A stretch of DNA of 44,200 bases, from assembly GCA_902767785.1 (NCBI GenBank), contig CACXIR010000014.1:1-44200 (forward strand), in the 5' to 3' direction. How positions within the stretch are numbered: position 1 is the first letter of the stretch; each line of letters opens with the position of its first letter. Under the pieces are notes generated by a model. It had not been told where the DNA came from and did not search any database. It saw only the letters and a list, made by a program, of their open reading frames with translations. This DNA comes from Fibrobacter succinogenes (GTDB lineage: Bacteria; Fibrobacterota; Fibrobacteria; Fibrobacterales; Fibrobacteraceae). Position numbers and translations under genes: made by a program. Positions 6,474 through 7,157 of this stretch are shown here, one piece after another.

Positions 6474-7157
6474 CTACTTCACCCGTATGCGGCGGTCCTG
6501 AACTACGCCGTCCACAGAAACGCGGACATAATAACTTCCACGGCTGAAGTTTTTCAGCGACAAGGTATGGGCTCCAGAGGTTTGTCCATAGAAACGTGCC
6601 ACAGGGATTCCCATCGCGTCGTAGATGCGGATCTTTACACGAGACGTTTCTGAAATCATCACTATCAAATCATTGTTTTCAAAACCAATCATTGAGTTAG
6701 CACCTTTCGCAAACGGAAGGCCTTCCGTTTTCTTGCTGCTAGAAGACCGATCTTGCTCACTAGAGCTAGAAGGCTCTGCATTTTTGCTGGAACTAGACTG
6801 AATGCTGGAACTAGATGACCGTTCCAGTTCACCAGAGCTAGAAGACTCTGCGTTTTCGCTGGAACTGGATAAACGCTCTTTTACAACCAAGAGCAAAGAG
6901 GATTCTTTTTGAATATTGTAGTCGGCCAGGGTATGGCCAACTTCAAGTTCCTGATCCTCAAAAAAAAGGGTCTGCTTATCAGGCTGATAGCCTTCCTTGT
7001 CCTGGATTTTCATCTTGACTTCATCAATGGAATCACCAGGCTCCACCTCAAGGGTTATGGTTTTTCCCGTCGGAACATTCACAAAGATTTGCATGGCCGC
7101 CACATGGGCAACAAGGAGCAACAGTGCGACAAAAACCTTTCGGGAATTGTTGTTCAT
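6474..7157 (-). CDS. Exported ubiquitin-domain protein with Ser-rich linker and T9SS-like tail
   Basis: 227 residues from the ATG at 7157; a TTG at 7163 would add two residues. Residues 1-21 are a signal peptide (N-terminal Arg-Lys, VFVALLLLVAHVAA). Cleavage after VAA would leave Met22 as the first residue, exactly Met1 of ubiquitin. Residues 22-93 align without gaps to human ubiquitin 1-72, which I recalled from memory: 48 identical positions, including TGKTITLEVEP, KIQDKEG and DYNIQKES. Lysines equivalent to K11, K27, K29, K33 and K63 are kept; K6 and K48 are lost. Of the Ile44 patch, Leu8 is Pro, Ile44 is Phe, His68 is Leu and Val70 is kept. LRGG is absent, so normal conjugation is not possible. 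Residues 95-145 are SSSSE-type linkers, and the last 80 or so resemble a T9SS sorting domain (KIRIYDAMG, GSYYVRVSVDG, final RIRVK). It lies 13 bases after the methyltransferase gene, probably in one operon. Its function is unknown. Confidence 0.9.
   Translation of the reverse strand: MNNNSRKVFVALLLLVAHVAAMQIFVNVPTGKTITLEVEPGDSIDEVKMKIQDKEGYQPDKQTLFFEDQELEVGHTLADYNIQKESSLLLVVKERLSSSSENAESSSSGELERSSSSSIQSSSSKNAEPSSSSEQDRSSSSKKTEGLPFAKGANSMIGFENNDLIVMISETSRVKIRIYDAMGIPVARFYGQTSGAHTLSLKNFSRGSYYVRVSVDGVVQDRRIRVK

What the first reader, a model, noticed from the sequence alone, without database searches (positions are those of the whole stretch)
6474..7157. Secreted, probably surface-displayed ubiquitin domain in a bacterium
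A signal peptide is fused directly to a domain that aligns gap-free with ubiquitin 1-72: 48 of 72 identical by hand alignment against the human sequence as I remember it. Cleavage after VAA would expose Met1 of the domain. It continues into Ser-rich linkers and a T9SS-like C-terminal domain, while LRGG is missing, so it is not a conjugation tag in the usual sense. Most ubiquitin-like proteins in bacteria are cytosolic and weakly similar; one known parallel is the secreted ubiquitin homologue of Bacteroides fragilis. Here the domain sits in a multi-part surface protein. Altered Ile44-patch residues (Leu8 to Pro, Ile44 to Phe, His68 to Leu) and loss of K48 suggest a new partner. A plausible origin is transfer from a gut eukaryote; its role could be mimicry or simple use as a stable fold.
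Basis: partly seen in the sequence, partly recalled or inferred. Interest (0 to 1): 0.93.

Follow-up and report, generated by a model that had tools for sequence, protein, structure and literature searches.

The report
Surface-displayed ubiquitin with rebuilt face
A Fibrobacter genome carries a true ubiquitin domain fused to a predicted signal peptide and a surface-sorting tail, one of more than eighty exported-looking ubiquitins found here across bacterial phyla; it would likely sit on the cell surface, where its changed binding face may grip a new, still unknown partner.

Summary
Window 6474-7157 (minus strand) encodes 227 aa: predicted signal peptide, gap-free ubiquitin starting at Met1 (48/72 identical to human), Ser-rich linker, T9SS type A sorting domain. 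The genome has 39 sorting-tail matches (36 over cut-off), and its SprA translocon gene lies in this window. The gene is a single-gene insertion: its two neighbours touch directly in the 12 nearest relatives. This copy changes 8 of 9 Ile44-face positions but 0 of 16 core ones; of nine other distinct Fibrobacter copies, seven change none of the nine. I found 95 distinct candidates, 83 with a signal-like stretch ending at Met1, in a dozen bacterial phyla plus archaea (mostly MAGs, some isolates), followed by T9SS, autotransporter, dockerin, S-layer, exosortase-type or sortase-like ends. Most likely reading: captured ubiquitin reused as a surface binding head, here retargeted like a natural engineered-ubiquitin variant, perhaps for antagonism. 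Localisation, signal cleavage and partner are untested; across the family the Ile44 face is not specially conserved.

The parts
7095..7157 (-). predicted signal peptide (residues 1-21); a cut after AHVAA would leave Met1 of ubiquitin as mature N-terminus
   Evidence: sequence; own heuristic met; cleavage not tested
6879..7094 (-). ubiquitin domain (residues 22-93 = ubiquitin 1-72)
6702..6878 (-). Ser-rich linker (about residues 94-152), predicted disordered
   Evidence: segments of pLDDT under 50 between residues 98 and 151
6477..6701 (-). T9SS type A C-terminal sorting domain (about residues 153-227)
   Evidence: TIGR04183 26.0 bits, cut-off 23; all-beta, pLDDT about 90
6459..7170 (.). inserted 712 bp that carry the gene; absent between the same two neighbours in the 12 nearest relatives
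5016..6458 (+). NtrC-type sigma-54 regulator, convergent left neighbour
7171..8154 (-). RlmI-like SAM methyltransferase gene (PF10672), right neighbour; 13 bases lie between its stop and the ubiquitin ATG, so co-transcription is possible
17097..23879 (-). [quoted passage not shown]
   Evidence: TIGR04189 1021 bits, cut-off 200

Best explanation
This gene encodes a ubiquitin domain built as the N-terminal head of a protein with a predicted signal peptide and a type 9 sorting tail; it is predicted to be exported by Sec, passed through the T9SS and held on the cell surface, where its changed Ile44 face likely binds a partner other than the usual eukaryotic ubiquitin receptors. Shown here: architecture, single-gene insertion, SprA and sorting-tail genes in the genome, an unchanged ubiquitin core with a changed face, and many exported-looking relatives with other C-terminal parts. 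Inferred: signal-peptide cut at Met1, surface location, binding. My best guess for the partner is an envelope protein of a competing microbe, so that the protein would act in antagonism or contact as B. fragilis BfUbb does (about 0.3); a partner on rumen or gut protozoa is next. It would work like a natural counterpart of engineered ubiquitin variants, in which much the same face is altered to make new binders (that comparison is recalled).
Against: No localisation, expression or binding data. Family-wide the face is not specially conserved (changed 0.20 against 0.167 for other non-core positions, n=91), so no common partner is implied. I chose the face set after seeing the alignment. Six of the seven face-intact Fibrobacter rows are near-copies at one locus, so they are not seven independent cases. 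In the family scan only 1 of 56 good genomes (90% complete or more, contamination 5% or less) has a ubiquitin gene, against 10 of 111 overall. BfUbb is bare, 76 aa and ends in Cys; this protein is fused to a tail and has no Cys. A linked immunity or partner gene was not searched for systematically. The window genome is a single MAG-like assembly, 87.8% complete. The sorting domain was barely tested in the fold search.
Confidence: 0.45

Rival explanations
1. Eukaryote-facing decoy: the displayed ubiquitin binds ubiquitin receptors of protozoa or host cells.
For: 55 of 91 family members keep L8, I44, H68 and V70 all intact; K63 is kept in 90 of 91. Extracellular activity of ubiquitin is reviewed in PMC10892293 (start of abstract in a listing).
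Against: In this copy L8P, I44F and H68L alter the patch that most ubiquitin receptors use (recalled). Family-wide the face is no better kept than the rest.
Confidence: 0.2
2. Inert stable fold: ubiquitin is used as a protease-resistant N-terminal cap, without a partner.
For: Core kept 16 of 16 while the surface changes; joined to many unrelated C-terminal parts.
Against: Non-core, non-face positions stay about 83% identical to human ubiquitin across phyla, which seems more than a fold alone would need; changes here concentrate in one face. Recent or repeated transfer could also give high identity.
Confidence: 0.22
3. Decaying copy: a moved, no longer selected gene whose face drifts.
For: Lowest-scoring of the 10 Fibrobacter matches (75.9 bits against 96-108); at a site of its own.
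Against: Frame open over 227 codons, listed core positions unchanged, dN 0.22-0.24 with dS 2.4 or more where computable.
Confidence: 0.08
4. Eukaryotic DNA contamination or chimeric assembly.
For: Fragmented assembly (177 contigs); carriers are mostly lower-quality assemblies (1 of 56 good genomes).
Against: Bacterial-type signal peptide and T9SS tail in one frame; neighbours syntenic with relatives; the protein's 90% cluster counts 9 member sequences (their independence was not checked); one carrier, G032, is 99% complete; relatives in isolates and on the complete Ruminococcus albus 7 plasmid pRUMAL01.
Confidence: 0.01
5. Conjugation tag of a bacterial ubiquitin-like pathway.
For: High identity to ubiquitin.
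Against: No LRGG, predicted signal peptide, C-terminus continues. The E2 search gave 0 of 10 genomes, but nothing rang in the controls, so it shows nothing.
Confidence: 0.01

Closest known systems
BfUbb, secreted ubiquitin of Bacteroides fragilis (PMC3352274, PMC5705921; passages seen)
   Same: Signal peptide ending at Met1; similar identity to human ubiquitin (63% in the paper, 48/72 here); no GG; gut-type bacterium; patchy distribution; the model matches 8hm1 and 8hm2.
   Different: BfUbb is bare, 76 aa, ends in Cys and is released; this one is fused to a linker and a T9SS sorting tail and has no Cys. Identity in the structural alignments 49-51%.
Other exported-looking ubiquitins of Fibrobacter and rumen clostridia (e.g. 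L010-L017, L020-L035; R. albus pRUMAL01)
   Same: Signal-like stretch at Met1 and ubiquitin head; for many, shared residues such as H54 and A57.
   Different: Eight Fibrobacter copies sit at another shared locus; six of these (and L009 elsewhere) keep the Ile44 face. The clostridial ones have other C-terminal parts.
Engineered ubiquitin variants (UbV), e.g. 5jg6, 6crn
   Same: Ubiquitin fold kept while much the same beta-sheet face is altered (fold rows; design principle recalled).
   Different: Laboratory products; here natural, with predicted export and anchoring.
T9SS type A cargo proteins
   Same: C-terminal sorting domain over the curated NCBIfam cut-off.
   Different: Usual cargo are enzymes or adhesins (recalled); here a ubiquitin head.

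Membership tests
Ubiquitin family (PF00240) | profile match over the gathering score and beta-grasp fold | tested here: met
Ubiquitin as conjugable modifier | C-terminal LRGG, free or processable | tested here: not met
   ERLS at 73-76, chain continues
BfUbb-type secreted ubiquitin | signal peptide whose cut leaves Met1 | tested here: inconclusive
   AHVAA/MQIF in the sequence and own heuristic met, but the cut itself cannot be shown here
BfUbb-type secreted ubiquitin | bare mature ubiquitin of 76 aa ending in Cys | tested here: not met
   mature part would be about 206 aa with linker and sorting domain, no Cys
BfUbb-type secreted ubiquitin | inhibits strains of its own species | not testable with these tools
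   needs a bench assay
T9SS type A cargo | C-terminal sorting domain over curated cut-off | tested here: met
   TIGR04183 26.0 against 23; PF18962 at 21.5 is under its 27
T9SS type A cargo | T9SS translocon in the genome | tested here: met
   SprA 1021 bits in the window; 39 sorting-tail matches; other T9SS genes not searched
T9SS type A cargo | found on the surface or outside the cell | not testable with these tools
   no proteomics

The most novel reading that the evidence does not exclude
Bacteria repeatedly display captured eukaryotic ubiquitin on their surface: a signal peptide-ubiquitin head that spreads horizontally and is plugged into whatever anchor each lineage owns (T9SS tail, autotransporter barrel, exosortase or sortase signal, S-layer domain, dockerin). 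In the window copy the partner-binding face has been rebuilt over an untouched core, a natural ubiquitin variant aimed at a new target.
Probability: 0.5. Interest if true: 0.88.

Novelty: new variant of a known kind. Interest (0 to 1): 0.74.

Why it matters
Ubiquitin is the textbook eukaryotic intracellular tag. A family of exported, anchored ubiquitins across bacterial phyla would show that it also serves as an extracellular binding head, with natural experiments in face remodelling. It makes a clear question testable: what does ubiquitin bind when there is no conjugation machinery? It would also widen BfUbb from a case in one species to one branch of a larger class.

Tried and rejected
Contamination: rejected (synteny, empty site, isolates). 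Chance beta-grasp match: rejected (48/72 identity). Conjugation tag: rejected (no LRGG). E2 search: silent in 10 of 10 genomes and in all controls, so uninformative. Donor search with the polyubiquitin P0084: the 120 best rows listed are polyubiquitin-type proteins, with no named donor carrying the signature residues. Phages: no match; plasmids: 3 records; viral contigs: 12 loci, some exported-looking and some plain ubiquitin, so no clear carrier of this gene.

Face conserved in the whole family: tested and not so (0.20 against 0.167 changed). Single bacterial origin: the best tree with all 92 bacterial rows together is 21.7 lnL lower, p-AU 0.254, neither rejected nor shown; 14 changes between bacterial and eukaryotic state on the free tree. 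Window with the 8 Fibrobacter rows of the other locus: the free quick tree missed it, the held tree is 20.1 lnL higher, p-AU 0.716. The tree has 72 columns, 2 of 133 inner branches starred, and lists the window's end branch as long. The eukaryotic rows are repeats from proteins that two searches listed, not a sample of eukaryotes.

Selection of rows: one search found 172 loci and kept the best 80 by match to the whole query, which favours signal-peptide forms. Genome scans with PF00240 do not: leaving out the three seed genomes (own, G111, G112), there are 16 strong matches and 15 pass the signal heuristic; the failing one, L009, has a leader that ends FAT. Rows with a ubiquitin part under 70 residues were dropped before the 95 were counted; 3 more (L077, L085, one of L155) were dropped for the position counts, leaving 92, of which 81 pass the signal heuristic. 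3 of 95 were left out of the tail scan for short tails; tails were cut to their last 500 aa, and about ten end at a locus or contig end. Empty site: of 29 relatives' loci read (L109-L137), the methyltransferase gene lies directly beside ntrC in 13, within about 0.8 kb in one, and was not found within the locus in 15.

Papers: listings showed me no paper on Fibrobacter ubiquitin or on anchored bacterial ubiquitins; most subscription papers and all bioRxiv preprints are not held. Seen as passages: PMC5705921 (which itself says B. fragilis is one of a few bacteria with a eukaryotic-like ubiquitin), PMC3352274, PMC12853789, PMC11205867, PMC4378268 (ubiquitin hydrolases of Babela, not ubiquitin). 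Jiang 2023 (Nat Microbiol) was seen only as a reference.

Full report

Export machinery. The genome has 39 sorting-tail matches, 36 over the cut-off, and SprA, the T9SS outer-membrane translocon, is encoded in this very window at 17097-23879 (1021 bits). Other T9SS genes were not searched. A T9SS route is thus likely available; export itself is predicted, not shown.

A single-gene insertion. In the 12 relatives with the most similar NtrC protein (87-90% identical) the left neighbour (an NtrC-type regulator) and the right neighbour (an RlmI-like methyltransferase) end tail to tail with overlapping stops; the window carries 712 bp between them. One of the other 17 relatives' loci read (L136) shows the same adjacency; in most of the rest the methyltransferase was not found beside ntrC. 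The window's joint is flanked by GTAGAAG and CTTCTAC; 4 of the 12 relatives have this short inverted repeat exactly and 8 with one change, which may be chance. The gene has 46.5% GC (GC3 0.50) against 55.4% and 54.9% for its neighbours. Ten of 111 genomes of the family have a ubiquitin gene, all of one genus, so 10 of its 80 held genomes; among genomes of good quality it is 1 of 56. Eight of the ten share a different locus (nucleotide synteny), read in two of them as lying between a carbon-nitrogen hydrolase gene (PF00795) and a 788-aa outer-membrane-receptor-like protein (by eye; only a weak CarbopepD_reg_2 match). One has a third place and a longer protein (L009/L099). This genome has the receptor-like gene, but neither the hydrolase nor a ubiquitin gene was matched in the 1.5 kb upstream of it.

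A changed face. Against human ubiquitin the window copy changes 0 of 16 core, 8 of 9 Ile44-face and 16 of 47 other positions (Fisher p 0.0033). Of nine other distinct Fibrobacter rows, seven change 0 of 9 face positions, L019 changes 3, and L040, whose frame is disrupted there, 2; six of the seven are near-copies at one locus. Among the 91 other rows the mean is 1.8 of 9 and three reach 6 or 7. Across the family the face is not better kept than the rest (0.20 against 0.167 changed), so I do not claim a common partner. dN against relatives is 0.22-0.24 with dS 2.4-2.9 or not computable, so the frame looks selected. The face list was mine and was written after I had seen the alignment.

A wide family. 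A search of genome contigs found 172 places and kept the best 80. With the genome scans these make 95 distinct candidates; 83 have a signal-like stretch ending at Met1 (200 shuffles: mean 13.9, maximum 23), 92 begin with Met and 7 have LRGG. By record title or NCBI lineage they lie in Fibrobacterota, Bacillota, Bacteroidota, Verrucomicrobiota, Lentisphaerota, Kiritimatiellota, Pseudomonadota, Myxococcota, Actinomycetota, Cyanobacteriota, Chlorobiota, Synergistota, KSB1 and methanogenic archaea. Most are MAGs, where binning errors are possible; isolates that pass the signal heuristic include Hoeflea marina, Algibacter lectus, Pseudomonas putida 31800, Cocleimonas flava and Ruminococcus albus KH2T6. 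The complete R. albus 7 plasmid pRUMAL01 has one too, already annotated as ubiquitin family protein; the match includes query residues 9-99, part of the signal region. In genome samples they are rare: 6 of 395 Bacteroidota including the seed and 2 of 398 Bacillota with a strong match including the seed (two more pass the cut-off weakly, one looking like another enzyme by eye and one giving no BLAST match to ubiquitin; the 14 controls are silent). Of 92 C-terminal parts scanned, at E<=0.01, 16 match the T9SS tail (8 of the 92 rows are Fibrobacter copies with such an end), 14 an autotransporter domain, 4 a dockerin, 3 S-layer domains and 2 an IPTL-CTERM signal; 3 have sortase-like ends by pattern. 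That one head meets so many anchoring systems is the strongest sign that display outside the cell is the point.

Origin. The window falls with rumen-type bacterial copies and one unnamed polyubiquitin, P0084 (27 rows, SH-aLRT 93, not starred). G20 with H54 occurs in 16 of 92 bacterial rows, the window included, and in 4 of 201 distinct eukaryotic repeats, which are the four of P0084. A gut eukaryote is a plausible donor lineage; it is not identified. With 72 columns the tree cannot settle one or many transfers.

How it likely works. Predicted Sec export, then T9SS, then surface hold by the sorting domain; ubiquitin head at the end of a flexible linker. The changed L8, I44 and H68 would spoil binding to most eukaryotic ubiquitin receptors (recalled), so a new partner is likelier. 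BfUbb shows that a secreted bacterial ubiquitin can inhibit related strains while bovine ubiquitin cannot, and data there suggest that producers need no immunity protein (PMC5705921 passages). Antagonism is therefore my first guess for the role, at about 0.3. An inert cap or a eukaryote-facing decoy remain open.

Novelty. Secreted bacterial ubiquitin is known from BfUbb, and its authors note a few other bacteria with eukaryotic-like ubiquitin. Anchored, multi-part ubiquitins in many phyla, and this face-changed Fibrobacter form, were not found in my paper searches, which miss most subscription papers and bioRxiv preprints. I file it as a new variant of a known kind.

Noticed in passing
[quoted passage not shown]
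   Followed up: yes
window 10477-12471 and 12302-14143 (-): Two overlapping ORFs in different frames, the first Ser-rich with a weak sorting tail, the second without a Pfam match; they may be one interrupted gene or two genes.
   Followed up: partly
window 6447-6453 and 7176-7182: The insertion is flanked by GTAGAAG and CTTCTAC, a short inverted repeat over the stop codons in relatives (exact in 4 of 12, one change in 8); may be chance.
   Followed up: partly
L153 786-1094 and 1408-1728 (genome G437): Two bare signal peptide-ubiquitin genes in tandem in a genome of the Bacteroidota sample; one ends TPPCN, close to the C-terminal Cys reported for BfUbb, with 0 of 9 face but 6 core changes.
   Followed up: partly
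L016 1411-1779 and L040 327-695: A Fibrobacter succinogenes copy leaves the ubiquitin frame near residue 67 and stops soon after; broken gene or assembly error.
   Followed up: no
L083 180-1475 and 1673-3001; L069 7033-7623 and 7608-8174; L079 7767-8687 and 8698-9390: Neighbouring pairs of ubiquitin-bearing genes in a Thauera, a Clostridia and an Actinomycetota assembly, hinting at local duplication; the two of L079 fail the signal heuristic.
   Followed up: no
L162-L164 (viral contigs): Three IMG/VR contigs carry a signal-like stretch, ubiquitin and a VPTMSEW-type membrane tail like an exosortase signal; whether these contigs are truly viral was not checked.
   Followed up: no
L173 3983-4723 (R. 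albus 7 plasmid pRUMAL01): A ubiquitin family protein on a complete mobilizable plasmid, with an integrase/transposase gene a few genes away.
   Followed up: partly
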